DNA from: Cerioporus squamosus | Lineage: Eukaryota; Basidiomycota; Agaricomycetes; Polyporales; Polyporaceae | Length of the DNA: 64,000 nt | Assembly (NCBI GenBank): GCA_022592435.1 | Contig: JABYQS010000134.1 | Location: 41,491-105,490, forward strand | Direction of reading: 5' to 3' | Shown here: positions 21,103-46,882 of the stretch, piece after piece | Position numbering within the stretch: the first letter of the stretch is position 1 | Layout: each line of letters begins with the position of its first letter | The notes under the pieces: model-generated | What the model was told of the DNA's origin: nothing | The model's input: only the letters and a program-made list of their open reading frames with translations | The model's database searches: none | Translations under genes and position numbers: made by a program

Positions 21103-21239
21103 GATCTCTGCATGCGTTGCTTCGCTCCTCCGAAACATCTTGGACAATCTGGGTATATCATGTATCTATGGGTACCTGAACTCTATGCTCTCATACCGCC
21201 CTTCCGGATAGACTGTACCTCTGCAACTGACCTCAAGCG

Positions 21240-23586: not shown

Positions 23587-25490
23587 TTACTTCCCAAGAG
23601 GACAGCTGGCATGCAGGACGAGGGTCGACCTGGGGTTGAGCGCGCATGGAGCGAAGGATAAAGCGACGGGGAAGTGGGGATCGAAGGTCTTGCTGAGGCC
23701 AGGCCACGCTGGAATGTGGTCCGCAGGACAGACGTGGTGGGTGTCACCGTCAGCAGGGTCTGTCACGGTGGACTCCCACATGTTCACCCAGCGGGCGGAG
23801 GCCCACAAGGGAGCACCTTCGTGGTATCCTAGAGCCGACCCCGAGCTATTCGGCGCTCGAGCAGCAGCGCATACGCCGACGTGGATAACGAGCGGGGCCA
23901 CTCCCATAGGATCCGAGAATGTGAACGTCGCGGGCCGGGTGCCCTCCCATGCGGTCAAAGACGATATGCGGTACTGCCCCAAATTCCAGTAGCGGTTCAG
24001 ATTGTTGAGGAAGCGTCTGATGTTGGATTCGGGAAAGCGAAAGGGCGGGTTCAAGATGTGATTGAACAGTATCGGTGGGATTGGCGCGCTGCTCGTTGCG
24101 GAGATCTGGGAGTGAGTGTGAGCGGGAAGGCTGTGGATGAGGTACACCTCTCTCCATATCCACGACACGTCACGACCAACGACCATCCCGAACAGGTTAT
24201 CACCTTCTGCAGGGGTCACTGCCACGACGCGAGCCCTCAGAGTAGGGCCGTCAGGAAAGCCGACGCAGAACGAGGACCGCAGGGGATCCGGGCTTTCGGG
24301 ATGGCTGGTGAGTAGCAGAAACAAGCGATTCTGTCCGGTGCACCAGCCAAGGTCAGCCAAGGACCACGTTCCGAACTCGATCACTGGAATGCGGGCGAGG
24401 ACTCCGTAAGGAGTGATGGAAAGTGTGACAATGCCGGTGTCTTGGAATGACTGGAGGCCAGACTGCGTAGAAATCACATTGTCAATGAGTAGAATACGAC
24501 ACGAGAGCTCGAGCAGGTACGTACGAGGATATCCCACGCGCCTCGCGCCCAAGTGTTCCAGGACATGCGGCAGGTGATGGATCCGCATCCCTTGAATGCG
24601 GCCGGGGACGGAGCGAAGAGACACGATGATGACGGAGGTGGGACACCCGGCGAGGAAATTCTTCGTAGCGTAAGCTCGAGAACGAGGGTCGGGAGCGGCT
24701 CGCCCCATGCGAACAGAGTCGTGTCCTTGCTTTGCTTCATGATCTCCTCCTGGAGACGTTGAAACGCCTTTCGCCCTTCTCCATAGAGGGTAGGCATGTT
24801 GATATCGAAGATCCCCAGCAGGCAGTACGCTTCATCCTCCACCCGTGTGGTCTCCCGATACGCCGCCCAGGACATGCGCTGAGCGATGCTGAAGTCTGAC
24901 AGGGAGGCCTCGAGACAGAGCAAGCGTGCGGGTACCCCGGTAGCATTCTCTAGGATCCCTGCGAAGTCGGCCTTCGATCCCAGCATCTCCCAGCTCCGAG
25001 AGAGGAAGAAAACGACCCGAGGAGCGATGAGTTCCTGAAGCGTCCAGCCGCGCTTGTTCCATCTCGTCCATCTCAGACTCGAGGAGTGGTCACGACTTGC
25101 CCCATGCGGAGTGTCCAGCTCGGAGGCCGTTCCGGAAGGCACGTCTCCAAGGTATGCGTAGCAAATCTGAGCGAGCGAGTAATAGTGGAACATGGAGTTG
25201 ATGGCCTCGGAGAGCTCTGCACTGCTGGACTTGTCGATGCAGCATGTGTCTATCCACAGCCACTTGAAGCGGTGACGCTCCGCAAGCTCACAGCACTCCC
25301 TGATTTTGTCGCGGGCGAGGGTGCGCGGGTTCTCTCCGGTCGCCTCGCACCTTTTCCTAAGCTTCTGCATGTCCTTGAACGACTGCTCCTCTGCGTCCCA
25401 GACATGCGAGAGGATCGCGTAGCCATCCTTGACTGCTTCAGGAGAGGGAAAGTAGTGGAGCTCTGCGCGGGCGGTGTTGAGCAGCCACAT
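23587..25490 (-). CDS. HET-domain protein 1 (heterokaryon incompatibility type)
   Basis: Exon 1 is 25490-24525 (322 codons) and exon 2 is 24462-23587. They are joined by a 62-nt intron with a GTACGT donor and CTACGCAG acceptor, giving 613 aa. The N-terminal HET domain (about residues 5-200) shows YAILSHVW, WLWIDTCCIDKSSSAELSEAINSM and RGWTLQELIAPRVVFF, followed by TRVEDEAYCLLGIFDINMP, the usual end of the domain. The C-terminal half is anonymous. HET domains trigger cell death when incompatible fungal cells fuse; whether this copy does so is unknown. ATG 25490 was chosen because it aligns with the start of the second HET gene; an in-frame ATG at 25613 reads through a likely 5' intron or leader. 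Confidence 0.85.
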
Positions 25491-25936
25491 GAGGAACTCT
25501 GCAGTTTCAGTACGAACTTGTGTTAGTCTCAATGGGGCACAGATTTCAGACCTACATACCTGGCGTATCCTGTATGTGGAAGACGACGGCGATGGCTCCA
25601 ACTGTATCCGCATGTGCGTGCGACGCGTTGACGAGCGAGTGGGAAAGGGTGACTAGCAGAAGCGCCAACCGAGACTCACGTCGAGTGACGGGGCTCCTTA
25701 TGGCGATGCAGTTGTCAGACGTGAGACCGAACACCGACACATTGCAGTGCGTTCAATCTGACCTTGCAGCGAGATGCCTCGAGCGCGTCCATCTTTCCCT
25801 TCGCGAACACTTGATTCACTACGAGCTTTTGTGCCAGAGTGACAATATTTGAACACGTACGAACATTTCATTGGCATCCGTGCCGGTAACCCCTCTTTTC
25901 CTTCGCCGTATATGAGTACGAGATTCCGCCGCATCA
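25491..25936. other. Spacer between the two HET genes
   Basis: This is the 5' flank of HET gene 1 and the 3' flank of HET gene 2. It may hold a 5' untranslated exon of HET gene 1 (an AACTGCAG acceptor-like site lies just before its ATG). No other feature is supported. Confidence 0.4.
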
Positions 25937-28141
25937 TCAACACAGCATATCCTGAATGCTCAATGCGAGTCGTAGCTTGCGCCCGCAGCGTACTGTGCCC
26001 GGGGCATGATCGCGTACATCATCGGTACACGACTCCTGGGATGCTCGCCCTGGGATGATTACGGCCGTGCTCTCATCCGTGCCCTCCGGCTGGGATGTCG
26101 AAGCAGCTTCACGCGCTTGGATCAGGGGGGCTGGTCGATGACTCCCTAGCTCCACGGAGGGCGTAAGGAGCCCTTGCAGCTCGTCTGCGGATGGGATGGT
26201 AACCTGCGCCCGAGCGAGCATCTCCACGAAGACTGCACCAACAAGCTCAAGGTGAACAAGCAGTGTCCTTGCAGGGTCCAACTTCGACGGAGTGAACGAT
26301 ATCCGCACCGCTCTCTCAGCGTCTCCGAAGAGCCTCGACTGCACGGGGAACCACGCATCGATATGGTGCTCATCACAGTCATGCACATCTGACTGCGGGA
26401 CGGTCACGCTGTCTTTGGCGTGCGGGAACACGACCCTGGCCCAATACGTCGTGGTCGGTGACTGGTTGCAAGCCCCCATGTCTACATAGATGTGCTCTCC
26501 GTGCTCCCAATTGTGGAACCGAACCCGGGTGGTCGAGTTCCAGAAGTCGGAACACGAGTAGGAGGAGTGAAACCCGAGGGCGGAGAATCTCGCCAGGAGC
26601 CATTGGGGAAGGTGGAAGGCCATAGGTGCGGCCGAACGGTCGAGCTTGAAGGTTGGGAGGGAGGAGCGCGAGGGCGAGGGTGCGGAAGCGAGACCGTTGC
26701 CAGGGCTCTGAGCGATGTAGATGGTACGCCATTCTGCGGCAATGATCTCGCCGTTCAATTGCAGGTTTGCTATGTCGCTCCCTAATGATATCATGCGTAC
26801 GCGCTCTCGATGCCCGTTCTTCCGCTGGAGGGAGTCGCTGACGAAGTAGAGCGGTCTCGAGGGGTCCTGGAACGGGTTGCGGGACTCGTGGAGAAGCAGC
26901 CCTAGATGCTCCCCGCCCTTTTCGCAGAGCAACACCGCGACAGTGAAACCGTCGGCTTCAATGATCGGGAAATGACACTTGGCTCCGTAGTTGGTGATGG
27001 TAAATCGCGGAAGTGCATGGTATCCGAAAGGATGCTCGTCGCTGTGATGCGCATGCCGACGATTGCGCTGCATTGAATATCCGGTTAACGTTGTCGTAGT
27101 TAATGAGAAAGAGGGAATCACCTTGGCGGCCTTCTTCCATTGCCATGGGAGGTACGGCTGGAGAGGCTTCTTGAGCCTGGGAGTGTAGTATGCACATCCC
27201 GGTTGGAACAAACTCGGTGAAGGTGCGAAGAGATATTGAACATCGTTCGAAGAGTTGGCAGCGCGGCTCGTGTGGTGGGAAGTGTAGTTGCGAAGGTCGG
27301 CACGCGAGACAGTCTTGCCCCAGGCGAAGAGACTGGTGTCGACGGACTGCTTCACGATCTCGTATTGAAGACGCTGGAAGGCCTGTCGCCCCTCTCCGTA
27401 TAACGTGGGCATGTTCACGCCGAACAGTCCCATGAGGCAGTACGCCTCATCCTCCACGCGCGTCGTACTACGTCCCGACGCCCAGGACATACGCACGGCG
27501 AGGCTGTACTTGCTGAAATGCGACTTGCCGGTGAGGACCCTCCTCGAGACCCCAGTGATTTCCTCCAGAAGGCCAGCAAGCTCGGATTTCACGCCGAGCT
27601 GTTGCCATTCTCGAGAAAAGAAGAGCACGAGCTCTGGCGCAATCAACTCCTGCAAGGTCCAGCCGCGAGCGTGCCAACGGCTCCTACGGAAATCGGAGTC
27701 TTGGGCAGCCAGAACGCACGCACTCGACACGTCCTCGAGGAAGGCGTAGCAGACTTCCGCCTGGGAATACCACCGAAACATCGAGTTAAGGGCTTCGGAG
27801 AGTTCGCTACTGCTCGTCTTGTCGATGCAGCACGAGTCTATCCAGATCCACTGATATCCGTGGCTCTCCGCAAGAAGGCAGGAATGGCGTATCTTCGGAG
27901 AGACAAGGTCTCGAGGATTTTCGGAAGTAAGCCTGCACCGCTCCTCCAAGAGACGTATGTATTGAAAGGAATCTTCACACTTGCTCCAAGTGTGAGATAG
28001 GATGGCGTAGCCCCCCGTGACAGCAGCAGTAGTGGCGAAGAAGTGTAACTCAGCGCGAGTAGTGCTAAGCAGCCACATCTGTGGAGGATACGGAAACACG
28101 ATCAGTGCACAGAGAAACAGGCTGAGGAACCGATAGACCAT
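25937..28141 (-). CDS. HET-domain protein 2
   Basis: This is one continuous ORF of 734 aa from ATG 28141, or 713 aa from ATG 28078 (MWLLSTTRAELHFF). The second start matches HET gene 1; the extra 21 residues are hydrophobic and could be 5' leader or a signal-anchor. HET motifs are YAILSHTWSKCEDSF, WIWIDSCCIDKTSSSELSEALNSMF, RGWTLQELIAPELVLFF and TTRVEDEAYCLMGLFGVNMPTLYGEGRQAFQRLQYEIVKQS. The C-terminal 400 residues are anonymous and resemble those of HET gene 1. A 54-nt in-frame segment near 27067-27120 has GT...GCAG ends and could be an unspliced intron. The gene lies head-to-tail with HET gene 1, an apparent local duplication. Confidence 0.87.
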   Translation of the reverse strand: MVYRFLSLFLCALIVFPYPPQMWLLSTTRAELHFFATTAAVTGGYAILSHTWSKCEDSFQYIRLLEERCRLTSENPRDLVSPKIRHSCLLAESHGYQWIWIDSCCIDKTSSSELSEALNSMFRWYSQAEVCYAFLEDVSSACVLAAQDSDFRRSRWHARGWTLQELIAPELVLFFSREWQQLGVKSELAGLLEEITGVSRRVLTGKSHFSKYSLAVRMSWASGRSTTRVEDEAYCLMGLFGVNMPTLYGEGRQAFQRLQYEIVKQSVDTSLFAWGKTVSRADLRNYTSHHTSRAANSSNDVQYLFAPSPSLFQPGCAYYTPRLKKPLQPYLPWQWKKAAKVIPSFSLTTTTLTGYSMQRNRRHAHHSDEHPFGYHALPRFTITNYGAKCHFPIIEADGFTVAVLLCEKGGEHLGLLLHESRNPFQDPSRPLYFVSDSLQRKNGHRERVRMISLGSDIANLQLNGEIIAAEWRTIYIAQSPGNGLASAPSPSRSSLPTFKLDRSAAPMAFHLPQWLLARFSALGFHSSYSCSDFWNSTTRVRFHNWEHGEHIYVDMGACNQSPTTTYWARVVFPHAKDSVTVPQSDVHDCDEHHIDAWFPVQSRLFGDAERAVRISFTPSKLDPARTLLVHLELVGAVFVEMLARAQVTIPSADELQGLLTPSVELGSHRPAPLIQAREAASTSQPEGTDESTAVIIPGRASQESCTDDVRDHAPGTVRCGRKLRLALSIQDMLC

Positions 28142-28414
28142 GCCTGATGCTGGAACGTCCTAAGGACAGCACCTTCTGGTCATGCACAAAGAGGCGACGG
28201 TGTCAGGGAGCGGATAGACAGCAATGGCTCAATAGTAAGGGAGGTCGCTTATAAGCCATTCACTGAGACTAAGACACCTCAGGAAGCAGCACGACAACGC
28301 ATGTACGAGGCAATGTGAGATTCCTGTGCGACCATTCGATTCGACTGATAGTGCCAGGGAATCCAACTACACAGCTGTGCAGAACGTCATACGGCTTCCT
28401 ACGGTATCACGGCC
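28142..28414. other. Intergenic, 5' of HET gene 2
   Basis: Promoter side of HET gene 2. No gene or repeat was recognised. Confidence 0.4.
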
Positions 28415-29256: not shown

Positions 29257-30605
29257 TCACTGGGTTTTACCACCCCCTGGTTCAATGTCAAGGAGGTGGA
29301 AGGAGGTGTAAGAGCGGTATTTACTTGTGGGTGAAGTATTGGATAAGCTTTGAGGGTAAACTTGATTCGAGTAGGTATAACAGATAATAAGCGCGAGAAA
29401 TACTCGAGATTCAACTAGGTGGTCGACTTGCCATCCCTACTAGCAGCTATCCTTCCGTCTGAACTACGTGGCCCACTCGACGTAGCAAGGAGGGCAGACC
29501 GCTGGACGGTATCCCCCGTTTTCGTTCCTTTCGGGCACTTGCCAATTCAAAAGAAATTTTAGGACTTAAGAATAATTGCCATTGAATTGCTACGATACAT
29601 GCCACAGCGTATACGGTACAGTAATACTTAGACGTACGTGATTGCATCAGTTGCGAAAGCACTCGCCACAGCTGATCTGAGAGCCTGCCATCTGCGAACA
29701 CCTGAAAGCCAATAGAAGGTTGTCAATATCGTGCAGGGGCCACGATTAGGTGGGGTCCGGACACTCACCAGTACCGTTAACCCTCTGAGTCCGTCCGGCG
29801 ACGTCAATCCGGGCGTGTATGCAGCCAAAAAGCGGTCACGTAGAACACAGCTGTACGTGTATAGAAGTGCTCAGCAGGACAGGATAGCAGTGAATGCATA
29901 TATGCGCTCACCGGAAAAAAGGTGGAAGGCAACCAGACGTGGAGGTTCTGCATGGTAGTGGATTGAGACGTCGCGGGAGAAGGACAGATCTAGAGAGAGC
30001 GACGAAATTGAAGGCTTGAAGAGTGCTCACCCGTATGCATGGTACCATACCCGGACACTACTCCCTGTAGCAGCCCCTCCGCCCAGGTCTCGGACACGTT
30101 AGGCGGGAAGTCTGAGTGTAAGTCATCAGCAGAGAGTGTCGGAGCGCTGCCTGCCTGCTTACTCTGTGACACCAGTACAGGGAGTTCACGAGAAGAGATA
30201 GGTGGGGGTGGTGGTGGTAAGAGACAACGAAGATGTAGAGGCGACTTGGGAAGCGAGGGCGGATTTTGATGAAGTCATGGAGCGCCGGCGTAGACCCTCT
30301 GCCCAGTGTTCGAGTAGCACTCAGATTTAATCCTCATCCAGAGGTCGGAGTATAGGACATCGACGAGAGCGAGGAGTCGAAGTTCAACTAGGTGCAAGTG
30401 GCCGGTTGCTTCAAGTTTACTCGCGCGTCGTCCATGGCTCGAGGACGCAGACGCCTCAAGCGTGGGACTCCGGCAAGCCTTTGGACCTAGCTGAACTAAT
30501 TTGGACTTGTAATAAGCATTCTATTTGCGGGATTTCACTACGTTTGACTAGCTAAAACTCCCAAATATACTGACAAGTGAACCAGGGGGTGGTAAAACCC
30601 AGTGA
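29257..30605. mobile_element. Possible 1.35-kb element bounded by 28-bp inverted repeats
   Basis: Positions 29257-29284 and 30578-30605 are perfect 28-bp inverted repeats, with outer ends TCACTGGG and CCCAGTGA. Weaker similarity continues inward (TTCAATGTCA versus TTCACTTGTCA). No target-site duplication could be seen directly outside the repeats and no transposase is encoded inside. The segment could be a non-autonomous terminal-inverted-repeat element or a local inverted duplication. Confidence 0.4.
29450..30172 (-). CDS. Hypothetical exon series inside the inverted-repeat segment
   Basis: On the minus strand, successive splice-flanked segments read SADDLHSDFPPNVSETWAEG, DLSFSRDVSIHYHAEPPRLV, RFLAAYTPGLTSPDGLRGLT and VFADGRLSDQLWRVLSQLMQ. 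Donor-like GTGAGC/GTGAGT and CAG acceptors separate them. Phases could not all be reconciled and no start or family was found, so this could be a decayed gene. Confidence 0.3.
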
Positions 30606-31125: not shown

Positions 31126-31621
31126 TTAAGAGTATCGCTGAGAGGCGAACGAACATGTACTAACCGGATCCGTCGAAGAAGGGACAGCTGTGGTTACGGT
31201 CACGGATTCGATACTGGCGGAGGAGGGATGCGTCGCTTGTGCGCTCGTCGAGGATGCCTGCAGGAGGAGTGAACGTCACTGTTTGTCATGGCTCGCGAGC
31301 AATGAACCTGTGAGGAAGAACGTACCTCGAGAGGCCCCTCACCCGGCGCTGAGGCTATCAAGCAGCCCATTTGCCGGCATCCCCTGTCTTCCAACAACTG
31401 GGTGACTTCTGTGTTACTACAGCTTCTCCGATTCAAGTTTTGAAGGTACGCACCAGAGTCGTTGCCAGTTCAAGCGGGTAAGCCGAAGCCGTTTGGATGA
31501 TGACCGAAGCTACGATCACTGGCAGTCAGATTGGGATGGCTGTTTGCTTGAACAGAGATAACCCACCTCCGACAATGGCAGATGAGATAATGAACGTGCG
31601 AGTAAGGATGAAGGACAACAT
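31126..31621 (-). CDS. Small secreted peptide precursor with RGCRQMGCL core, 104 aa
   Basis: Exons 31621-31567, 31509-31454, 31397-31326 and 31257-31126 give 104 aa in one frame, with all introns GT-AG and 54-68 nt. Exon 1 and part of exon 2 encode a signal peptide (MLSFILTRTFIISSAIVGAS, cleavage probably after the Ala of TASA). Exon 3 encodes LLEDRGCRQMGCLIASAPGE. Exon 4 is Ser/Thr-rich (ASSTSAQATHPSSASIESVT). The gene at 34113-34930 has the same start, the same 37-codon split over exons 1 and 2 in the same phases, and the same core. The two cysteines could close a six-residue ring (C-x4-C). No known family was recognised. A secreted or processed peptide is inferred from signal peptide plus conserved core. 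Confidence 0.6.
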
Positions 31622-31727
31622 GGTCGGGAGGTCCGAAGGAGCGACTAGGGGTTCTGACGTGGGACGGGCGTATGAAGTGAGAGACTGCTGAAGGACGAAT
31701 GTCGGTGTTCTTCAAGCAGCTCCGGTC

Positions 31728-31734
31728 TTTATGC
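31728..31734 (-). promoter_or_regulatory. TATA-like box of the 104-aa peptide gene
   Basis: On the minus strand GCATAAAGACC lies about 107 bp before the ATG at 31621. The related gene at 34113 has AGTATAAGACC at a similar distance (33974-33984), so the element may be conserved. Confidence 0.35.
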
Positions 31735-32859
31735 ATCCTCTGTGAGAGCTGAGCGGCGCGTTACACTCCGGGACACAACGATGAAACGGCGGCGACATAC
31801 CTGAAGATGGAGATCGCAACTCCCTGGCGAATCTCTCGAGCTCGTCCGCAACGCTCGAAGAATGAAACCCCATAATACAGATGGACGGACAGCTGCGATG
31901 TGAAGATCACGGTCGTACGGGGACATCCCAACAGGACGTGAATGCCCTTGTACGACCTCGCCAGGGACAACGGCGAGCGGTGATTCGTGGCGGCATGCTC
32001 GGACTACGCCCAGTCGCAAACTAGGGCATGCAGCAGCCGCGAAGGTGGCGGCCAGGGTTTGTGATGCGCCTTGAGAGTGATGTCGGCTTCGGGGGCTGAC
32101 GGGCGCGGCGCCCAGGTTGATTTCCGTCGCCGCGTATTGCGAACACAGCACCGACTCGGATGGGTCCCGCAGGCAAGCGTATCTGTGCATATGCGGTCAG
32201 GGTGGCACCAAATGCGCCTGAGCGAAGCATCTCACCGATGACGTACTCCTCGCTCGTCCGGTGTAGGAGACTGATGCGCTAGCTCTTGCCAACTAACAGG
32301 GCACCGACCTAGCATGAGAACGTTCTTGCATCGTAGGCCTTGGAGGTATGAGTACAAGGAATCAAGAACAGAATTTTTACAAGGGAGGTAATGTGTTGCC
32401 ACGTACACGTTTATAGGGATGCTCCGCTTGGGGTCGATAGCTCATGCCCCAGGGTCTAAGCTCAGTGCCTTGAAGCAACGCGAACTCGGACTGAATCGGT
32501 CTTTGAATTTGCTTGAACACTTCCGTGCGCAATTCACGGCTTTCCTATTGCAGTTGAAGCCGCCGAGGGTCTACTCCACTGGACGACAGAGGACATGGGC
32601 CGTCGGCGGTTGGTCCGGACGGAAGTTCGAGCGAGTGGGCGAGTTTGCGTCCGGTGAGGCTACTAGTCACCCAGGGTGTCGACAGCCCCTGCTGACAAGC
32701 ATCGGCCCCGACGGGCGGGCTGCATGCGCATATGATGCCCCAGTACGAACTCAAGGTATGCGATTGAACGATCTGTGAGATGGGCGCCGGGTGAGCGAAC
32801 CTGTTCGTTCCAGAGCGCAGGATCAGTACTACAAACGCTGCTCACGAGCAGGCACATAC

Positions 32860-32915
32860 CTCTCACAAACAGCGCCGATATAGCGAGGGCGCGATGGCCG
32901 CTAAGGGATGTATGG
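32860..32915 (-). pseudogene. Possible relic of a third peptide-precursor gene
   Basis: The minus strand reads SLSGHRALAISALFVRG followed by a GTATGT donor, resembling the exon 1 end RTFAISALFVGG of the 199-aa gene. No ATG is in frame nearby. A degraded match to the core exon may lie near 32700. Similarity is limited, so this is tentative. Confidence 0.25.
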
Positions 32916-33975
32916 AACGGTGTGTCCACGGGTAGTCAAGCCATCTCGTAGTGAAACGACGAGAGATTTCGTCTTCCGACTCTAGAACCTCGGCAGAGTG
33001 CAGCTATGTTGGCGTAACGAGAGAAGTGGGGTGAGCTGGTCTTTCTGGAGCAAGTTTCCGTACCTCATTCCGAAGAGGGCAAGAGAAACCGGAATGAACT
33101 TGGTTCGTAACTTAGTCGCATACGTGGCAACGTCAACAGAGCCTTAGTGTGCATCAGAGACATCTGTTGCGTCCGTGCATGTTCCTGGCTGTCAGTCTGA
33201 CCATCAGCAGGAAGTCAATGGGATCAGAATCGACGGGCGTACCGTACTTATGCATGGGAGTGAGGAGGGACCGAAGACCTTTGTGGCTTCCATTTTGGGT
33301 GGTTCGTTTGAACTTGCTCGTTTATAGCCGAGCCGCGAACTCAATCTAGATCAAGATTCGACCACAGACGCCCATAACTTGTCCGTCGACCACGAGTCGG
33401 ATGTTCCCCTTGTTACCACTCGCGTCTCGTCTCACTCAGAACTGTTCGAACACTACGAGTCTGACACCGCAGTCTTGGGATGTCTGCTGTGGACTAGGTA
33501 AAGCTCTTCCACCGCTCTAATAGCGCAAAGGTTAGCCAGTACGAGCAACTCGTCATATATGACCTTGAAGACCTGCCAGCGCAAACGAATAAGTATTTTT
33601 TATCCTACATGTGTGGATGTGGGGTGCATGACGTTGCAGCGGCTGGTCCCGGTGACTAGCCTGGTGCTGGAACTGCAGCGTAATACCCCGGATGGGCGCA
33701 TCGAGGCGGGGTGAAGAACAAGGACGCCCATAACCGGCAACGGAGGCGCGCGGGCAATGTCGTAAGTTGCCCTGCAGGCCGAGTCGGGCATCCCTTGTAG
33801 TCAAACGCACGCTTACCCGTCACAAACTCACTACCCAGTATGGACCCGCGCTTCCCGAGAAGGGCGACGCAATCCTCTCACCGCAAAAATAGCCGGACCC
33901 ATCAAGTCCCTCCTTCCTATTCCGACGCCTCCTTTGAGCAGCCAAAGCGAGCAGGGAGTTGTCTGTGCAACACAG

Positions 33976-33980
33976 TATAA
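33976..33980 (+). promoter_or_regulatory. TATA-like box of the 199-aa peptide gene
   Basis: AGTATAAGACC sits about 135 bp upstream of ATG 34113, with a counterpart before the 104-aa paralogue. Confidence 0.35.
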
Positions 33981-34112
33981 GACCCGGCGTAAAGATGTGG
34001 ACGAAGGCCAGCGCGCCTTCATCGGGTGTCCTGACCCTTCACCTCACCCCTACCTCCACCAGCTGATCCTCTTCGTTCTCTCCTCGAATACTCGCTTTGC
34101 TTCTGAGTCAAC

Positions 34113-34930
34113 ATGGTCCCTACTTTTATTCTCACCCGCACCTTCGCCATCTCTGCGCTCTTCGTGGGTGGTACGTGCGCACGACTCCTGCCGCGATGAC
34201 GCATGCCTGACCATTCCTGTGTAGCCTTTCCCATATCCTACGCTGCGCCTATTCCCAACGCAGCTTCTCCTTCCATGGTACGCCTCCGTTTTTCTGGCTC
34301 TGCTGTCTGTACTAATCCTCCGTTCCAGCGGTTCGCGGCTCGGGGTTGTCGTCAGATGGGATGTTTGTATGCTCTGCCTACTGGGAGCTCGGACTCGGTG
34401 GGTTACCTTCCTATCATCGCTCAAGGATTCAACTAACACGCTCCAATGCAGTCCGATGACCCTACTAGTTCAAACATCACCACGACGCTGTCAATACCTC
34501 CTGGCGGCTTCTCGCAAGAGTCGATGCAAGTCATAGACTTCCTGATCTCTGCCCTTACAGCCGCTCGCTCCGTTACCACAGACGCTTCTGCCAGTCCGAC
34601 GGTTGATGCTGTCGAACATACCGACGATGCGGTGAAAGTAGACGGGTTCGCGACTGCGGCCATAGCGGCAGAGCTAGAAGAGACGGCTTCCAGTGTGGAA
34701 GCGTCTTCGCCCGAGAGACGAGCGGAATCTCTGCCCCGTGTACCCGAAGAGAGCACTTCAGAACTCGCGAACGAGCTCAAAGCGCCCTCGACGATTCCTC
34801 GAGCGCTAGCAGCAGGAGCGGCAGTAGTGACGGTTGCGAGGGAAGCGGTACGTGCTCTTGTTCGTGCTGCACTGCGATAACAGGAGGCTGACAATTCCCA
34901 AATCAGGCCATTCTGGACGCTCTCGTATAA
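34113..34930 (+). CDS. Small secreted peptide precursor with RGCRQMGCL core, 199 aa
   Basis: Exons 34113-34170, 34225-34277, 34329-34397, 34452-34847 and 34907-34930 join into 200 codons with all phases consistent. The N-terminus MVPTFILTRTFAISALFVGA plus FPISYAAPIP is a signal peptide with likely cleavage at SYA-AP. Exon 3 encodes RFAARGCRQMGCLYALPTGS, containing the core shared with the 104-aa gene. The long exon 4 encodes an Ala/Ser/Glu-rich, probably disordered or helical propeptide-like region (TTTLSIPPGGFSQES, AAELEETASSVEASSPERR) with no cysteine. The tail is AREAAILDALV. A precursor releasing a Cys-ringed peptide is one reading; a small secreted effector is another. It shares no recognised family beyond its neighbour. 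Confidence 0.62.
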
Positions 34931-36252: not shown

Positions 36253-39078
36253 TCAGTTCCAATACTTCTCAGCGTAGATGCCGAGGACGGCACTGGCGAG
36301 GACATCGGTGTACGGCTGCACGTCCGCGGACGAGTACACCTTGTCGCTCTGGAGCCCGTTGAGGATCTCGAGCAGCTGCGACTCGATGAAGTCGACGAAG
36401 ACGAGGTCGATGGGCGTGTCGTCGGACAGGCCGCTGGGCGCATCCGTGCCGATGAAGTCCGGCGAGGAGAAGAAAGGCTGCAAGGCACGGCGTTAACGCG
36501 AGGGATTTAGAGCAGGTGCTAGGAGGCACGGAACGTACCAGAGGCGAGTGGATAACATCGTCACCGACCCCAGGGCAGGACTGTATTCGAAGCAGTCGGA
36601 GGCTCAGCTACAAGTTGAGAGGCAGCGACAGGAGAAGGAGAGACACGCACGTCGGAGGTCACATACCCCAGCGTCGCGTTCATCGCCGCGCGACGTTCAG
36701 CACCGTGGTTCCGGCGGTCCATCTCCTCGAGCCACGCCATGTAGCGCATGTCGACGTCGCCGCGCGCATAGCGCTCGCGCTCGTACTCCCGGATGAGCGC
36801 GCGGCGCTCGTTCGCGCCCGCGTTGTTCAGCGCGGGAAGGACCTGGCTGGCCACGGAGACGGGGACGCTGGGGATGTAGAGGAACGCGTCCGCGAAGGGC
36901 GAGGACGTCAGCTGATCGTTCTTCGTGAACGGCCCCGAGTACACGTCGAAGCGCTGCGAGCCCGAGTTCGTGATCATGATGTTCGGGGTGTCCGCGCGCG
37001 AGTTGTTGACGGTGAGCGAGTACTTCATCGCTTCGGCGAAGAGCGAGAGGAGTGAGTTGTTGGACGGGTAGGGCACCCTGCGGGCGCCGGTCAGGACAAG
37101 CGCAGCCTCCGAGGTAGATGGTAGACGTACTGGCTGAGCGTGTAGTCTTCGGGGCGGTGCCGAAGAGTTGGCCGAGGTCAAACTCTTCTGCGAGGTTTTT
37201 GAGGCCCTTGGTGATGGACTTCCCTGTCAGCGTGTCGAAGGTGAAGTTGCCTCGACCAGTGTGGTACTACGGCGCACATGATCAGAATGAGTATTGACCA
37301 CGATGGCGAAAGCATACCTCGTAAGTCACGCGATTGGGATCAAGGTAGCGACGAGAGAATGTGATGTTCTTTGTGGACCCTTTATGGTCAAGCTTTGCGC
37401 CTGAACAATTACGTCAGGGAGGTCAGTTGCAACGATCCTGACGGTACTCACTCATCCAGCCTGAGAGGAGAAAATACATCAATATCGGTCACGTATGTGC
37501 AAGTGAAAGATCGTACCGACTGTCTCCATGTAGCGACCACTCTCCAGAGCCATGGAGCGGCCATCATATTGGACTTGAGAACATCGTCAGCATGAAGCAA
37601 GTTAGCCTTCACACTTGCAACAATCAGCTTACTGCAATCACGGATGTGGGTGTGGCCTGGCTCATGGTCAGCAACTGGACGGAACTATGCATGCTCATGA
37701 CTCTTACCTCCGAGTATCAGGATCGGCGTGGTAGGGTGGACAGCACGAACAGCATTGAACACCGTCGGCCAGTTGTCCGTCTTCGCAACAGGCATGTGTC
37801 TGAGACGCTTCATCAGTATCGACTACCATGATCGAAATATGCTAGACTTGCTCACCCTGCGAGGAGGAAGAAGTCGGGCTCCTCCTTGATCGCCTCGGCG
37901 AACTGCGTGGAATGGCGGCAGTCAGTGCTGATGGACATCACGATGCTGAGGCGCGTACCCAGTGCTCCTTGACCATGTCCTCCACCTTCTGCACGGTGGT
38001 GTTCGCGTCGTTGCCCGTGAAGTCGAACAGGACTCCGAGCGAGGTGACCTTGCGGCCCCTGTACGGAGACACACTCAATGTCGGGAATAAGAAACAAGGG
38101 CAGTAGAAGAGAAAGCGTACTTCCGAGTCTTGAATTTCACGTACCGCTCTGCCGAGACACCGTCAGTCATCTCATGGGGGTGGGGGAGGATGTACTTACC
38201 GCCGACGGGCACGCTGACTGCCTTCCCATGCTCGTCCACGACGGTAATATTGACGTTCGAGGAGAGGTAGCGGCCGTTCAGCTTTGGGGCGAAGGTCTTG
38301 TACATATCGTATGTGTTGTTGTAGATGTACAGCTCATGACTAGACCATCGTAAGACTCAATACGCCTACGAGTGACACGGATAGACAGTGGACTCACTTG
38401 CCGATAGCCATAATGTCGTAGGGCAGTTCGAACAGGAACTTATTCGACTGCGAACCGGTTTGAGACTCTCTTCCATCGAGGCACCCGACAACTCGACTCA
38501 CCTCGTGACCGTCGACACCGCCCGGAGGGAAGCCGTCTGACAAGCCCGTACCTGTTCATGGCGATGTCAATCCCTCCCGCATCAAGAATAGCAAGGCAGG
38601 CAATGCGCGCACCGTCGTGCAAGTCACCCGAGTCAACCAAGAGAAGATCGACATCCTTTTCCTACACCAGGAATCAGTCCGCAGCACCATCCCATACCAA
38701 CAAACGTGAACGCACAACCGCGAGCTGCTTCATGTGGGTCACGAAAGACGCGAAGTCGCCCAAGTCGCCACTGTGCTCCGTCCCGCGTCATCAGCCCGCT
38801 CTCCGCATCCGAGGAACCGACCAGAGCATCGCGACTCACCTGTAGTTTGGCTCGGGGAACGAGCTCTTCTGGTGTCCGAGGAGCCAGCCATGGCTGTCGG
38901 TGGTGTGGATGATGTTCACGTCCCCCCAGACGAGCGGCCTGGTGGGCGGGGTGAGGCGCGTCTGGGGATAGGCGCGCCGTTCGTGTTCGTGCGCGTGCGC
39001 GTGGTCGTGGTCTTCGCCGGGGCACGCCCGGACCGCGAGCGCGGCAAGGAAGAGCGCGAGCAACGACGTGAGCTGCAT
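36253..39078 (-). CDS. Secreted 5'-nucleotidase / calcineurin-like metallophosphoesterase
   Basis: The gene starts at ATG 39078 with a signal peptide ([19 protein letters not shown]) and a His-rich linker (HDHAHAHEHE). Early exons are 39078-38840, 38770-38719, 38661-38613, 38551-38502, 38447-38398 and 38339-38200, all in phase. Metallophosphatase motifs appear in order: [11 protein letters not shown] (DxH), VDSGDLHDG, MAIGNHELY (GNHE), then LAGHMPVA and GGHTHIRD (GHTH type). A C-terminal nucleotidase-like region ends VLGIYAEKYWN at 36253. It resembles the fungal group related to yeast YHR202W. Near 37116 and 37151 a base is missing (C-rich spots), breaking the frame of the C-terminal domain; both look like homopolymer errors, though genuine loss is possible. 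The first six exons are repeated in units 2 and 3 downstream. Confidence 0.85.
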
Positions 39079-39137
39079 CGCGGAGACGTGCGTGGCGGGC
39101 GAGGGGACTGGAGACGCGTCGGGACGTCGCTCACGGT

Positions 39138-39144
39138 ATTTATA
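39138..39144 (-). promoter_or_regulatory. TATA box of the nucleotidase gene
   Basis: On the minus strand CGGTATAAATACCG, a TATAAAT inside a short palindrome, lies about 60 bp upstream of ATG 39078. It is repeated in the truncated copies near 50757 and 62419, the last with a changed flank. Confidence 0.5.
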
Positions 39145-39243
39145 CCGGGGCTGCTCCAGGGGCGATACGTTTCGTGCCGCGCTCGGATAGTTGGCAGGAT
39201 TCCGGATTGATGTCAAAGCAGCGGACTGATGGGCAGGAGCGTA

Positions 39244-39960
39244 TCATCTGTGGTGTAGGGCGATCAATTGGAGATCCATCATATGGTTTCTCGTACTTAT
39301 CAGTCGTAACGCCGACCGATTGCCCACGTTCAGATATAGCTCGTCCAACACAACGGAGGCAACGCTGCACCGCGGACATACATTCTCCAACGCTCTTCCT
39401 GCTGCGATAGGTGAGAGAAGGTCGCAGAGTGAACGTGGACATCCACGAGACACGCCAGACGGCGCGGGGTATTCTGGGATAGACAGGCGCGTTCCTGCTG
39501 CACGCGAGGGAGGCGAATTTGCGCGCACGTTCGCTGCTGAGGATGTCCATACCGGTGTCCAGTCTGGACGGGTAGTGACAGTGACACTTACCGTCGACAT
39601 CGGAGCTACATAACCTCAGCTGGAGCTCGACTTCCCGCCTGCCAAGAGGTTTCGCTCGGGGGATTGAATCTGAGTTCTATGCACATGAACGATCTTCCGG
39701 CGACTAGCTGGAATGCAAGTGCGACGTGCGCAACGGTGCGAGGGGCAACGGTATAGCGACTGAGGCTGGCGACTACGCTCTGGGAGCAACTGAAGAGCAA
39801 GGACATGCACATACCTCGGCAGTCCATATCTCCTTCACACCATCCCGTCTCCCGTTCCATTCTGAAAGTGAGCCCGCCTCCACAATGATCGCGGAAAGGG
39901 AGTCATCCTGAGGTCGCACGTACTTGGGCTAGAGCCTGTCAAGTTGATTGCCAGCGCAGC
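39244..39960 (-). CDS. Anonymous exon-like segments
   Basis: Minus-strand segments flanked by splice-like sites include DDSLSAIIVEAGSLSEWNGR followed by RDGVKEIWTAE (CTCAG before, GTATGT after) and LVAGRSFMCIELRFNPPSE. A 118-aa ORF (39600-39244) is kept open in unit 2 at 51235-50879 but is broken in unit 3. The set could be a small multi-exon gene; no start or family was identified. Confidence 0.3.
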
Positions 39961-40079
39961 TCAGCGCTCGGAAGTGCATCCAGAGTAAATACCTGCCGAA
40001 AATACTGCAGAAACAAGGTGATGAGCGTGCAATGCGGGTAGGAGAGGGAGGGAAAACGCACATATACAACGCAACCGCC

Positions 40080-40794
40080 CTAAAGCTGCCCTATCCTCTG
40101 CTGCATCTTCTCCTTCACCGTCTGGTATGCGCTCAGGATCGTCTGCTCGTTGATGACTATCTCGTCGTGTCCGCCCTTGGCCGGCTGACCCGGGACGCGA
40201 TCGTCGTCGAGTCGGTCTCCACGATGATTCTACCCAGCATATAGTGCATCAGCCCCTCATGTACGAGCGGGCTCCGCCGCGCACAAGCAGACGGGTGAGA
40301 CAGCGGGTGTAAGGCACTCACCCGTCGTCGATTGTCTCGTCTAGACAGAGGAGAACAAGGTCCAGGTTCTCAAGCACCCCGCGCTTCTCCACTTGGTTGC
40401 GCAGAAGGAGCATGACGGCGTCGGAGAACGCGACCAGGGCAGCGTTCAGCATGAGCTCGTTCTCGGTCGGGTCGCCGATGATGTAGAAGATGAGGTCGAG
40501 CGAGTGCTTGTAGACCGCGAGGTGCGAGTCATACAGGATGATGTCGCCTGCTCATGCGCATGAATGGAGCGGATAGCGATGAGCGACGGAGAGCACGATG
40601 CACACCGGTCATGGACGCACCTCCAGCCTTCTTCGTCTTTTGGAAGAGCCCCTTCTCAAAAGCCCGCTGCTCCTTCAGCGTTGTGAGCTTCTTCGACTCG
40701 CCATTCGAATGGCGAGTCGTACTTTGCGAGGACGCGATGGCCGCCGGTGTCGATGATGAGGAACGCGGTGACCGTGTAGAGCGACAAGTCCATG
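40080..40794 (-). CDS. RET3: Coatomer subunit zeta, unit 1 copy (frameshifted)
   Basis: This encodes the zeta subunit of the COPI coat (longin-type fold), which acts in retrograde Golgi-ER vesicles. From ATG 40794 it reads MDLSLYTVTAFLIIDTGGHR and VLAKYDS, then in a shifted frame NGESKKLTTLKEQRAFEKGL, then DIILYDSHLAVYKHSLDLIF, DPTENELMLNAALVAFSDAV and VLLCLDETIDDG, then IIVETDSTTIASRVSRPRAD. Two breaks exist. One extra base (or two missing) in exon 1 lies within a perfect 26-bp palindrome at 40694-40719 and is shared by unit 2. A second, unit 1-specific break after RADT leads straight to TAG, so the final helix (IVINEQTILSAYQTVKEKMQ) is out of frame. The unit 2 copy is intact at that point. 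Confidence 0.85.
40694..40719. repeat. Perfect 26-bp palindrome in the zeta-COP exon
   Basis: The sequence is self-complementary over 26 bases, centred on TTCGAA, with arms beginning CGACTCGCCATTC. It coincides with the exon 1 frame break. In unit 2 the equivalent (from about 52341) is imperfect at its centre. Confidence 0.85.
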
Positions 40795-40849
40795 GTATTC
40801 GGCGTACTCGAACGCAGACAGTGAGTGAGGAGGCGAGCAAGACATCCTG

Positions 40850-43240
40850 AGCAAGCGCGAGGAGGAGTGCAGCCGAGGTCGTGGTCACCGTCGTCTCGTC
40901 CCCGAGGTCGCGCGCAACGGTCTGGTTCGGACACACACGTCTGCAGCTCACTCGACTTGTGTTGGACGCGTCTCTCGCCTCTCTGCACCTCGGTCCTCGC
41001 CTCTCCTCGCACTCGGCCGCGTTCCAGCAGGGTAGCCGGCCTCTCTCGCCCTGGGTCCGTCCCTCAAGCTCAGTCAAGACCTCCCTTGGCGCATCTCCAC
41101 CGTGCGCGACCTCCTCCCGCATCCGCAGACACGTCTCCCAGTGAGTGCCGTTCTCCCTCCCTGCCGCTTTCCCTCCTCCTCCCGCGCTGTAGTCTACATG
41201 TACTCGACAGCCATACAGCAATGATATCCTATTGCTATCCGATGCTCAGCGTGTGTGCAATCAGTGAGTGCACTCGAACGCCTCGTCTGAAGTCGCGCGT
41301 TCCTCAATCCCACTTGCCCGCATCTATCCTCCTCCCTCCTCCTCCGCGCACTACAAGACCGGTCTCAAACGGTATCCACTTCGCCCGCGACCTCCGTACA
41401 TCCCTCCCGACTCGCGCCGGCCGTCGAAACGTCGTTATCCCGCCATTCACCACGACATCGAAGGTGTTCGACAACTGTGCACGTACCGTGGAATCCTGAC
41501 CGTTTCAGAACCCGCAACGACGCACAGAGCCATACCAGGACGTCCCTCCATCGACTCCGAGTGCGTACGCGATAGGCCCCCATGAGCACGTTACGTCGCA
41601 AATTCGCCGTCTGTCGCCCGCACACTCCGCGCTCTACACACGTCTATAGGTACGTCGCGTCAGCTAAGGTCCTGCGGTATGCGATGCTGACCTACCGTGT
41701 GCGTTGTTGTCACCTCCAATTAGTCTCGCTCTAGCCGCCGTTCGCCGCTGACGACCAGAATTCTCCCGGCGCGCGCTGCAAATCGCCCGCCCTTCCCGCG
41801 GGAGCACTGGGATCGCTTTAGGAGCACACCCAGACGACGGAAGGGGCTCGTACGAGACAGGCGATATGCGTTACATGGGCAGACGACGCGATCTCGTCGA
41901 GATACTGCCCGTTCATTGCTGCAGTAGCACAGGTGAGCCATCGTGCACAGAATGCGAAGCTGACAAGCGCACCTCTCGTATGTAGGTCTCCTATGTCCTA
42001 GCGACATTTTGCGACGTCCTGCGTGCGCTGCGCGTCGAGCCGGGCCAGACGGGGGGCATACGTGCCAGTAGGATGGGGACATGGGGACTTCGCGGGGGAC
42101 GGATTCAGCGGGGCAGAGGAATGTATTCAAAGGCGCTACTAGCACCCCTCCTCGTCGCGCTCACTTACACAGGACGTCCACTCGCCCTCTCTCGCTCCTC
42201 TCTGCACTCGACGCTCTTTCCACGTGCCAAGGCCTCTCTCTGCTCGCTCTCCAAGACGCGACGCCGTTCCGTCTGCGCTCTGCATCCCGACTGCCTTGCG
42301 ACTGCATCTGCATCTGCCTCTGCACAGCCACCCACGCCGGCCGCGGCTCTCCAGGCCCACCACCGACGCGCCTCCCTTCGGGCTTATGGCGCACTGCGCT
42401 CGGATGCATCGCGTCGTCGCGCACTCCGAAGTCACCAGCGTACACGCGCTGCAAGTCTCTCCGCCAGCCCAGGTTCGTCCGACATCCCTCTCCGCCGTCG
42501 CATTTCCACGGCCATACAACTGTCAAGCACCGGAGTCCGACACCGCCGCCTCACGCTGGACTCGTCTCAACGTTCGCGAACACGCACACGACTCAAACCG
42601 CGTATGCGGACGGCAGCAGACGCAACGCCGCGGGCACAGGAGAGGGACAGGGCAAAAGACGTGTGTATTGGCCTGGTACGTGCTACATACATACACACTA
42701 CTACTGGTACCGACCCAACCCACCACTGACCGCTCACGCCGACCCAGTCACCGCGCCTCCGCTCGCTCGTCGTCAGCTGCACCACACTCCCATCCCAGCT
42801 CCGCCGCCTAACATAGTCTCACTCGCATAGGTCAGGGCGGTAGCGGCAACACGGAGGACGTACCGGACGAACACCATGCTCTCATGGCCCTCCCGGTGCA
42901 GCTGGCGCACGGCTCTGGCGGCGGAACTACGCCCCAGTCGAGGCTGTCGAACGTTCACACACCACGTCAGCGAGCTGTACAGACGGAACACGGCGGTGTA
43001 AAGTACACGTACCCTTGGACATGGCGAGCACAGCGGCCGAGTGTCAGGGCAGCGACGACATCGAAACGAGCAGGGCAGCAGGACGTCGAATAGAGCGGCG
43101 CAGAGGGAGAACGGGGGAGGGAAGACGATGTGAGCATCCCATGCCCCGTCTGTTCGCTCTCCGGGCAGTACTTATACCTCCCGCGTAGCCACGCACGGCC
43201 CAGTCTCGTGTGTCGTCGGCGGCCGCGCGTCAGAGTCAAT
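40850..43240. other. No supportable gene (unit 1)
   Basis: GC-rich sequence with long overlapping ORFs on both strands (for example 42081-42830 plus, 42519-42139 minus). They lack domains, and indels between units 1 and 2 are not multiples of three. The minus strand at 42990-42830 reads a coding-like stretch (REGHESMVFVRYVLRVAATA) that is also open in unit 2; it remains unassigned. Confidence 0.4.
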
Positions 43241-43789
43241 GCGACGCGGCGGTGCCCCAGAACCCGGACGAACCATCACGCGGACGCGACAGGGTCGAGG
43301 ACTCGCTTGGTCAAGCCCGAACACGCACGCTCCGCCTCGGCTGCACGACAAACAGCGCAAATGTGGCCGTTCTAACGTCATCAGGGAGCCGTTCGCCTGG
43401 GCGGTGGGGATGTGCACGGCGGTTCCAGCTCATGTTCGTGTCGGGCCCGCGATCGCAACTTCGCCAGGAAAGCTAGTCCAGACAGGTCCAGACGAAGTCC
43501 CCGCAGCTCGTGGACATCGAAGACGACGAGGCCCTCGGTGCGCCCGTTGTGCAGGAGCCTCAAGGGACGCTGGGAGGTGTGTCAGCACACCTTTGGAAGT
43601 CCCGGAATCGACGTCCTTTTTGCGGGGCCCAGTCGACGTCCGCACAAGTGGCATTGGGCTCCGTCCTTGGCGCGTGCCCGTGCAGAACACGTCCACGGCG
43701 AACCCCCGGAATCCTGGCCCGTCGCAGCGTCATCGTACGACACGGTCGTCGCAGACAGCGGCGGGATCGGACGGGTTACATGGACGGCG

Positions 43790-44930
43790 GGTACGCGACG
43801 GCTCCGACCTTTTGGTAGACGGTGAGTCTGGACCGTATCCGAGTCTTCGTGCTCGCGCATTGCTCGCGCATGCTAATCGCATCCCGGGCGGCCATGTGAA
43901 CGACGTTCGCTGTGGGAGCGCAGCCTGCAGCGGCGCGGCGACGAGCTGCAGCTTGCAGCTTGCAGGTAGGTCGTGTGCTTCCATGTATCGTACTTCCTTC
44001 GTGGATACAATTCTTCTCCTCGTCTCATGCACCTGCGTGAATCCGCTCGAAGTCGCATTGAAGCATGGCATTTCAGGAGCTAGCCCGGGTCGGGTCGGAT
44101 GGCTAAATCAACGCACGCGACGGCTCCAAGTTGCTGGTGAGTGCGCCGGTCGTCTCGGAACGGTTTGCATTACACTGACGTTGACTCGGACATTGACTTG
44201 CAGACGGCGTTGAGCCCGTAATGCACGAGCTCGGTGTCGAATGCGCTCGAATTGCGCAACCCGGCCGTCTTGGACTTGGAGGGAGAGCAGGTATCGCGGT
44301 CAGAGTCCGCGCGTTGTTCTTGCACAGGACAGGATTGCGAACGTCGTGCTCTGCGAGGATCCCGGATCCGCCGCGTCCTCCACCCACAGGTTCGTTTCAT
44401 GTGCGGTTGCGCCGTCCGAACGTTCGCATCGGGCTCGCTTTGGGATAATCGCGTCGAAGTTGGACGCGACGGCTCCGATCTGTCGGTGAGTATGATCGTC
44501 TCCTGGCCTCCGAGTCGCCGCTGATGAACTCGGAAGCTTCCAGACGAAGCTGCGCTTGAGTGTGTGAAGTCAAAGCAGCGGAACATGTCCACAGTGCTCG
44601 CGGAGGCTATTTGCATTCAGGACGCACACGACAGCCGGTATGACGTCGGGCGGGAGGTGTGCTCGCAGCGAGCTTGCTGCCGGGCTGCATGACATGGTGT
44701 CGAGACTCTGCTTGCGGCTTTCTGGTAGGTAGTAGTAGGTGCATCCCGGGCGACTGCCAGTGAATACAACCTTCTTTGCCTGCCCATGCGAATTGTGTGA
44801 CCTCCGTCCCCGCTCCTGAATGAGACCTACATGCAATCGCAATGCCAAGCGTTCTCGACGGCAGCCAGGGCCGAGCTGCACTACCGCATGCGACGGTTCC
44901 GACTTGCTGGTGAGCGGACCGGTCTTTCGT
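43790..44930 (+). repeat. Degenerate tandem repeats of about 320-420 bp (unit 1)
   Basis: The motif CGCGACGGCTCCGA/AAGT, followed 12-20 bases later by GGTGAGT or GGTGAGC, recurs at 43794, 44116, 44465 and 44889. Each period also contains a GTAGG splice-donor-like site and a Cys/Leu-coding stretch. The repeats are diverged, and translation around the motif reads RDGSDL(L)V in some copies. This looks like an old internal duplication of an exon-intron segment. The same array occurs in unit 2 near 55490-56620. Confidence 0.5.
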
Positions 44931-44970
44931 TCAACGTGACACGGCATGGGATTCAGCACTTGAGCGGCTT

Positions 44971-45315
44971 GTGCCTAGGCTCGAGACCACGATGCTCACT
45001 CTATTCTGCACCTCGGTGTCGGATACTGTCATGAGCAGCCCATCTGCAAGTACAGAGTACATGGCAAACGACTTGCTCGACAATTTGACTGGAGACTTGC
45101 CAGTGTGCCCTCGGTACATGTCCGTGTTCTCTGCACACCCCAGGGCATGCTTCATCTGCAGGGTGCTCGAGTCTTGGGCCGGGAGCATGGTTGTACACAC
45201 CGGTTCCAGTCCATCGGCGAGTTCGAAGTCTTCTAATGTCTCCGACAGACTGGGACGGAGAATCTGTGCTGCGGCGAGACTCGGAGTCGCGGCGAGGCCG
45301 CTGTCTGGAAGCTAG
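44971..45315 (+). CDS. Hypothetical ORF, conserved between units
   Basis: The frame reads TSVSDTVMSSPSASTEYMAN, then DLLDNLTGDLPVCPRYMSVF and SAHPRACFICRVLESWAGSM. The same frame is open in unit 2 (within 56506-57000) with very few changes. It may be an exon of a larger gene. No start context or family was recognised. Confidence 0.3.
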   Translation: MPRLETTMLTLFCTSVSDTVMSSPSASTEYMANDLLDNLTGDLPVCPRYMSVFSAHPRACFICRVLESWAGSMVVHTGSSPSASSKSSNVSDRLGRRICAAARLGVAARPLSGS

Positions 45316-45717
45316 AGCCAGCCTTCCAACTTCAATGTTATGCGGAGGACACATCCTGAGTGTCTCAGACTCGAGCCGTGTTCCCAGTGCCTTGAATAGA
45401 CATGGTCCTTTCGAGCCTTCTTCTGTCCCATAGAATCGGTACCGGCGACAAGACGAGAAGTCCTGCCAAAATAGACTAAGTAATGCTGAACAGCCGGGAC
45501 TTTCCTGGTCGCCGCTGCACCTCCGAGTTCGTCACCGCCAGTCTGTCTTCTTGTAGCGCTGCTTGCAATGTGCGTGGTATTTTGTCCGAGTCTGAAACTG
45601 GCACATGAAGTAAGTATGCATATAAAGACACTTGGATCTGCCTGCGTTGCAAACGTCGTCGAGCCCTAGGCCTCACGCCCTCTCTCTTGTGTGGACCCAC
45701 AGCCTGCTGGGTTCATC

Positions 45718-46539
45718 ATGGTCGCTACTCGTCCTCCTCATCTTCGCGCCCATGCTGTCAGTACATTGGACCAGCTTGCCCGCTCTTCCTTGCACCGTGC
45801 TGCCCTCGTTCATCCACTCCCGGGGCCTTCTGCCATACCCGAGTACAGTACAAAAGAGGCGGAAGTCCGAGGGACTGTCCGGATGCTGCTGAACGCGTCG
45901 CGTGGTTAGTTCTTTCCCATCCCACTCAAAATTTCAAGACCGAGTTCATCTCTCACGCACACAGCCGAGACGTCTGGAGTGCCGAATGCCAAGATGCGCT
46001 GGACGCTTCTCTCGTTCCGAGATCGTGTTGCCGTTCCGCTCGAGGTTGTTCTGCACGGGTGGCCGCCCGAGTTCCCCTTCATGAACCTCAGCCGCACGGG
46101 TCACGTCAGCATGAAGGCAATGCGGAAGCTCCTCGAGCTCCTTCAGGCGAAGCCGCCGCAGCTGTACTTTGTGAAGGCGACACCAGAGCAGCTGCACGCT
46201 GCCCGCCTCAACCCTGCGAGTGTCTGCCCCGGCCCGCTGTTCCCTGCACCTGCGCCCAGTTTCGGCTACAGCAACATCGGCAGACGGCCAGTCCAGCATG
46301 ACAAGAAGACTGGTGTCGCCATTCCTCACCGCTACGTCCGCGACGGGCCGAAGAGCGCGAAAGAGGTCTCGGACGAGGTCTCGGCTGCAGTCGATGCCGA
46401 GGTCAGGCCATCGCAAAGGAGGGGTCCGCTTCCACAGCTCCACACCCCGTACGGAGTTAAGCTCGGCTGGTACAGCACCGGCTGGCGGGAGTTGCCTGTG
46501 TTCGCAGATGTGGAGCCGGAGGACTCGTACGACAGCTAG
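45718..46539 (+). CDS. Hypothetical protein, 253 aa (unit 1)
   Basis: Exon 1 is 45718-45904 and exon 2 is 45965-46539, with a 60-nt intron (GTTAGT...CACAG), giving 254 codons in frame. The N-terminus is MVATRPPHLRAHAVSTLDQL. The central part reads MRWTLLSFRDRVAVPLEVVL, HGWPPEFPFMNLSRTGHVSM and KAMRKLLELLQAKPPQ; the C-terminus is basic, then acidic (ADVEPEDSYDS). The unit 2 copy keeps the same intron and frame with a two-codon deletion and few substitutions, which supports a real coding gene. It resembles anonymous proteins common in polypore genomes, often near repeats. No function is assigned. Confidence 0.6.
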
Positions 46540-46882
46540 TAGTATATGATTGCTCAAACCTTCGTTCTCAGTTACTTACTGTAGCGTACTACAAGCTCGG
46601 ACTGCTCGTAATCGACTCATTCTCAAGGTTCTGCCGATGCACTTGCTGTGTGACGGGGTAGAACTCCTGGAAGAGAAGCACGAAATAGCCTGCCATCCGC
46701 GTATCGCAAATTTTAACCCCAGCGAAGCGAGGTTACTCTTCACCCACTGCCACCTCCCGGCGTCACGTTCGAGGATACGACGCGTCGTCTGACAGTGACT
46801 CTCTTCCGCCTTCCCCCGTCGACTTCGTGTCGAACTTTCCCACCTGCCGAGTCCCGACATCGCTCCCTTCTCCCCTACGAGC

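What the first reader, a model, noticed from the sequence alone, without database searches (positions are those of the whole stretch)
31126..34930. Two-gene family of predicted secreted peptides with an invariant RGCRQMGCL core
The genes at 31621-31126 (-) and 34113-34930 (+) were modelled independently. They share MxxFILTRTFxIS signal peptides, 37 codons over exons 1 and 2 with identical splice phases, and an exon 3 carrying RGCRQMGCL four residues after its start. Outside this core and the signal peptide the proteins differ in sequence and length (104 versus 199 aa). Strong conservation of a short Cys-containing core in otherwise free-running secreted proteins is the pattern of a processed peptide or small ligand. 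The C-x4-C spacing would give a six-residue disulfide ring, as in oxytocin-type peptides (an analogy only). No known family was recognised.
Basis: partly seen in the sequence, partly recalled or inferred. Interest (0 to 1): 0.82.

Follow-up and report, generated by a model that had tools for sequence, protein, structure and literature searches.

The report
Polypore secreted ring-peptide precursor genes
Two neighbouring genes of a bracket fungus encode small secreted proteins with the same short two-cysteine segment, and they belong to an apparently unnamed polypore family in which some relatives carry that segment several times behind protease-type cutting sites, as precursors of small peptide messengers do.

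Summary
Both genes read as described: 37 codons over exons 1+2, intron phases 1 and 0, RGCRQMGCL four residues into exon 3. In the core 7 of 9 codons differ between the genes, yet all 9 residues match. A 199-aa database protein lacking all four introns confirms gene A. Exact-pattern scans of this genome find only these two genes, each on two contigs. The family is wider: three capped searches gave 58 proteins; the named sources are polypores. Relatives show what the core is: 17 proteins carry 2-5 cores; Arg stands two residues before the first Cys in 70 of 80 cores, 28 of 78 as KR/RR; six proteins end one residue after a core. In 13 of 14 genomes with several members these sit on one contig (equal contig length as proxy). 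Best reading: secreted prepropeptides cut by a Kex2-type protease, releasing a disulfide-ringed peptide near x-C-R-x-x-G-C-L/M. Genes A and B have one core each behind a single Arg, so neither meets the definition of Kex2-processed repeat proteins. Cleavage, disulfide and function are untested. Gene B is the weaker model.

The parts
34113..34170 (+). gene A exon 1: most of the conserved signal sequence (MVPTFILTRTFAISALFVG)
   Evidence: conserved in relatives
34225..34277 (+). gene A exon 2: end of signal sequence and short pro-segment (signal cleavage after SYA inferred, no SignalP run)
34329..34397 (+). gene A exon 3, holding the core
34341..34367 (+). gene A core RGCRQMGCL
34452..34847 (+). 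gene A exon 4: acidic tail with a conserved helix (QVIDFLISAL region)
   Evidence: helix predicted at residues 79-101 of the P. arcularius homologue
34907..34930 (+). gene A exon 5, ends LDALV
31567..31621 (-). gene B exon 1: signal sequence MLSFILTRTFIISSAIVG
31454..31509 (-). gene B exon 2
31326..31397 (-). gene B exon 3, holding the core
31359..31385 (-). gene B core RGCRQMGCL
31126..31257 (-). gene B last exon as modelled; other acceptors possible

Best explanation
Genes A and B encode prepropeptides: a very conserved signal sequence, a short pro-segment ending in Arg, one two-cysteine core, and an acidic, mostly disordered tail. In the secretory pathway a Kex2-type protease cuts after the Arg that stands two residues before the first Cys; the two cysteines close a ring, giving an extracellular peptide near G-C-R-Q-M-G-C-L (in gene A perhaps extended by YALP or more). 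It most likely acts as a signal between hyphae of the same fungus, made in larger dose by relatives that repeat the core. Shown: the genes, homology, repeated cores, Arg/KR/RR placement, linkage on one contig. Inferred: cleavage, disulfide, mature ends, signalling.
For: Core kept by silent changes only between A and B. 58 homologues. 17 proteins with 2-5 cores, 47 cores in all; Arg at -2 in 38 of 47 (4.0 expected on shuffling, 0 of 3000 as high) and in 36 of 36 single-core rows tested (1.1 expected, 0 of 3000) (P0002, P0045, P0046, P0057, P0058 dropped). Among 64 distinct contexts 52 have that Arg; before it stand K 17, P 11, A 9, R 5, against K 21, P 22, A 51, R 39 of 346 other Arg: K and P enriched, A and R not. 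21 of 61 KR/RR sites of the 17 proteins are exactly at the core. Six proteins end one residue after a core. Fibroporia P0037 has KKR-IPDTDSCREEGCM-KRR. 13 of 14 multi-member genomes have the members on one contig. A proprotein-convertase P domain is in this genome. Vogt 2022 (PMC9769878, Results parts 1-2 read) reports peptides ending at single Arg when mushroom precursors were made in yeast. The precursor model is mostly disordered, mean pLDDT 50.7.
Against: Genes A and B: one core, single Arg (A-R, D-R), no basic site right after the core. In type A the next K/R is 39-60 residues on in 20 of 21 rows and absent in P0014, and YALP is conserved, so a short octapeptide is not shown. 10 of 80 cores lack Arg at -2, among them both cores of P0037 and P0043. 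No receptor known; the STE2 search found nothing but had no positive control. In Coprinopsis six kep knockouts showed no phenotype (PMC9769878). No signal-peptide predictor or expression data were available.
Confidence: 0.55

Rival explanations
1. Types A and B are not peptide precursors but small mature proteins: the pro-segment is removed at Arg and the product starts with the ring, followed by linker, helix and acidic tail.
For: No basic residue between core and the end of the conserved helix in most type A rows; helix conserved (D86, S90, L92 invariant in 21 rows) and predicted (pLDDT 78 in its best block); YALP conserved after the core.
Against: The multi-core relatives with KR/RR, and six proteins ending one residue after a core, point to the core itself as the product; gene B lacks the helix.
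Confidence: 0.22
2. The released ring peptide acts outward, as an antimicrobial or defence peptide against competitors, not as a signal.
For: Wood-decay fungi face competitors; several paralogues, copy number and residues around the ring vary between species.
Against: The core is very conserved, unlike most such peptides; Vogt 2022 saw no antibacterial activity of other mushroom KEP peptides (different sequences).
Confidence: 0.15
3. The cysteine pair is a metal- or thiol-binding segment in an unprocessed secreted protein; the Arg before it is structural.
For: No cleavage has been shown; the two Cys are invariant among type A rows.
Against: KR and PR enrichment before the core and core repetition.
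Confidence: 0.05
4. Gene B is a decaying copy and only gene A works.
For: Long branch 1.08, diverged signal sequence end, no close relative found, unsure last exon.
Against: Core perfectly kept with silent changes; frame and splice ends intact on both contigs, 2 silent and 1 amino-acid change.
Confidence: 0.25

Closest known systems
Kex2-processed repeat proteins (KEPs) of fungi (PMC6339444, PMC7329392: passages read; PMC9769878: abstract and Results parts 1-2 read)
   Same: Signal-sequence precursor; in 17 relatives repeated cores, in many with KR/RR in front
   Different: Genes A and B and most members found have one core behind a single Arg; signal sequence unusually conserved. The surveys required repeats (three in Le Marquer 2019), so single-core members would be missed; their supplementary lists were not open to me, so multi-core relatives may be in them
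Ascomycete alpha-type sexual pheromones with two cysteines
   Same: Short two-Cys peptide cut from a secreted precursor; in P0037 and P0050 KR is followed by IP/AP, as in STE13-type sites
   Different: Spacing C-x4-C, other residues; basidiomycete mating uses a-type lipopeptides; no STE2 hit, though that search had no positive control
Dikaritin RiPPs (ustiloxin type)
   Same: Secreted Kex2-cut precursors
   Different: No UstYa match on the window's contig C40 among 16 matches in the genome; cysteine ring instead of a tyrosine-based one
Oxytocin/vasopressin peptides
   Same: C-x4-C spacing
   Different: No other likeness seen; Pfam scan of 38 members gave no neurophysin among its families

Membership tests
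Kex2-processed repeat protein (KEP) | signal peptide | tested here: inconclusive
   hydrophobic conserved N-terminus with an A-x-A-like end read by eye; no predictor run
Kex2-processed repeat protein (KEP) | repeated core (three or more in Le Marquer 2019) | tested here: not met
   genes A and B have one core each; relatives: 17 with 2-5 cores
Kex2-processed repeat protein (KEP) | KR/RR/KK between repeats | tested here: not met
   A has AR, B has DR before the core; relatives: KR/RR exactly before 21 of 47 cores
dikaritin (ustiloxin type) | UstYa (DUF3328) gene close by | tested here: not met
   16 matches in the genome, none on C40
alpha-type pheromone | STE13-type XA/XP dipeptides after the Kex2 site | tested here: not met
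   A and B: GC after Arg; present only in some relatives such as P0037 and P0050
alpha-type pheromone | STE2-type receptor in the genome | tested here: inconclusive
   0 matches, control rang nowhere
oxytocin/vasopressin | neurophysin domain | tested here: not met
   no such family among Pfam matches of 38 members at E up to 1 (gene B was given there as an early 61-aa draft)
processed disulfide peptide | oxidised peptide in culture | not testable with these tools
   needs mass spectrometry

The most novel reading that the evidence does not exclude
A Polyporales-wide peptide hormone system: ring peptides of the form x-C-R-x-x-G-C-L/M (C-x5-C in Irpicaceae), made from a linked cluster of one-core and many-core precursors, working like the two-cysteine alpha pheromones that basidiomycetes are held to lack, with its own receptor and a signal sequence so constrained that it has a second role.
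Probability: 0.18. Interest if true: 0.85.

Novelty: new variant of a known kind. Interest (0 to 1): 0.6.

Why it matters
Few extracellular peptide signals of mushrooms are known. Here is a small, conserved, easily synthesised candidate found in many polypores, with precursors that show both the one-core and the many-core design, so that processing and role can be tested directly.

Tried and rejected
Tried without result: Rfam and tRNA scans of the window (0); UstYa cluster idea (none on C40); STE2 (nothing, no control); Pfam on 40 window ORFs for a modification enzyme: only two HET domains, an NAD-nucleotidase C-terminus and an RRM above cut-off, so no processing gene was recognised, but only 40 ORFs were scanned, mostly of the 212 of 110 aa or more. 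PDB profile search: 0. Papers: six searches; the exact strings occur in none of the texts held (supplements not searched). A Pro-Arg preference of Kex2 is recalled: the search and the passages seen in PMC8999023 did not bear on it. Tree of 47 rows on 41 columns: C-type one side of a branch (99/96), B-type weak (68/76), type A not one group, gene B unplaced. Limits: protein searches scored only the 7997 and 7998 candidates sharing most words, so absence outside Polyporales is not shown. Order membership was looked up for 8 of the species, 8 of 8 Polyporales; the others are recalled. Same-contig counts use equal contig length as proxy; Earliella scabrosa is the exception.

Full report
The locus. 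The window lies on contig C40 of a 54-Mb assembly. The protein record of gene A on a contig of the same length names Cerioporus squamosus, a member of Polyporales. Gene A (34113-34930, +) and gene B (31621-31126, -) are divergent, about 2.5 kb apart. The public model P0002 keeps intron 2 and misses the last splice; P0001 (source lgn, longest contig 1298 bases) has 199 aa with all four introns gone, and relatives end in LDALV alike. P0001 probably stems from a transcript assembly, which is an inference.

Is it more than chance? FILTRTF is identical in A and B while 5 of 7 codons differ; in the nine-residue core 7 of 9 codons differ and no residue does. So the likeness is old and kept at protein level. 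Exact-pattern scans of the whole genome give only these two genes on two contigs, with 0 in the reversed control. C728 matches the window in pieces of 93 to 99% identity and is probably the other haplotype. Between the contigs gene A has 4 silent and 3 amino-acid changes, gene B 2 and 1: too few to measure selection.

The family. Three protein searches gave 58 proteins, 52 of them from 36 named genomes. 39 have one core, 18 have two or more by pattern, one (P0045) none; P0057 among the 18 has atypical matches and was left out of the set of 17. FILTR occurs in 55 of 58, although those containing this piece were the easiest to find. Types: A (core followed by LYALP or alike and a helix), B (KR before the core, short), C (many cores, Trametes group), a brown-rot set with C-terminal cores, and Irpex relatives with C-x5-C. 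T. versicolor has members with locus tags 11528, 11530 and 11531; Wolfiporia 140091 and 140092; T. sanguinea 008669 and 008670. In 13 of 14 genomes with several members all lie on one contig by the length proxy; Earliella scabrosa does not.

Why a processed peptide. Counting C-x4-C cores with genes A and B (and P0001), 70 of 80 have Arg at -2, 75 of 80 Arg after the first Cys, 70 of 80 Gly before the second, 74 of 80 Leu or Met after it. KR or RR stands before 28 of 78 cores of the database proteins. Shuffling residues outside the cores gives 4.0 and 1.1 Arg at that place against 38 of 47 and 36 of 36; related rows are not independent, so this shows placement, not a number of events. K and P before this Arg are enriched over other Arg, A and R are not. 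Six of 58 proteins end one residue after a core, which marks a natural right-hand end; five of these six lack an Arg at -2 there. P0037 has its unit between KKR and KRR. Together these resemble the design of Kex2-processed repeat proteins (PMC6339444, PMC7329392, passages; PMC9769878, abstract and Results parts 1-2).

What does not fit smoothly. In genes A and B the core stands once, behind a single Arg, with no basic site right behind it. In type A the stretch up to the helix has no K/R for 39-60 residues in 20 of 21 rows, and none at all follows in P0014. So the product of gene A may be longer than eight residues or a ring with a tail. AlphaFold gives a mostly disordered chain, mean pLDDT 50.7, with one helix at 79-101. 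No modification enzyme was recognised in the 40 ORFs scanned, and no UstYa match lies on C40.

Function. My commitment is an extracellular signal of the fungus itself, because the ring residues are much more conserved than the rest; this step is inference. The alpha-pheromone likeness (two Cys, Kex2, XP dipeptides in a few relatives) is an analogy: Le Marquer 2019 states that basidiomycete mating uses only a-type pheromones but found alpha-like precursors in that phylum (PMC6339444, passages).

Verdict. A real, conserved, to my knowledge unnamed family (searches; supplements not seen). Genes A and B do not pass the formal KEP test, while relatives of theirs show repeated cores and Kex2-type sites. 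Gene A is solid; gene B is probable.

Noticed in passing
29258-30604: A 1347-base element with 31-base inverted ends (CACTGGG...) and a 3-base duplication ACT is present on C40 and absent on C728: an insertion difference between the contigs, CACTA-like by its ends (name recalled).
   Followed up: partly
38190-64000: Large tandem duplication of about 11.5 kb: 43017-48568 and 54725-60236 are 97.7% alike, 38190-41231 and 49805-52908 95.7%, with a third partial copy from 61247.
   Followed up: partly
24477-28159: Two HET-domain (heterokaryon incompatibility) stretches on the - strand beside gene B.
   Followed up: no
36564-37226: C-terminal domain of an NAD nucleotidase on the - strand beside gene A.
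   Followed up: no
6485-8738 and 18907-21172: Inverted pair of about 2.3 kb at 83% identity.
   Followed up: no
34278-34328: Intron 2 of gene A differs at 11 of 51 bases between the contigs, far above its surroundings.
   Followed up: no
34452-34847: Type A tails share a conserved helix (QVIDLLISAL) and, in Trametes relatives, a PAVEVVG segment of unknown role.
   Followed up: partly
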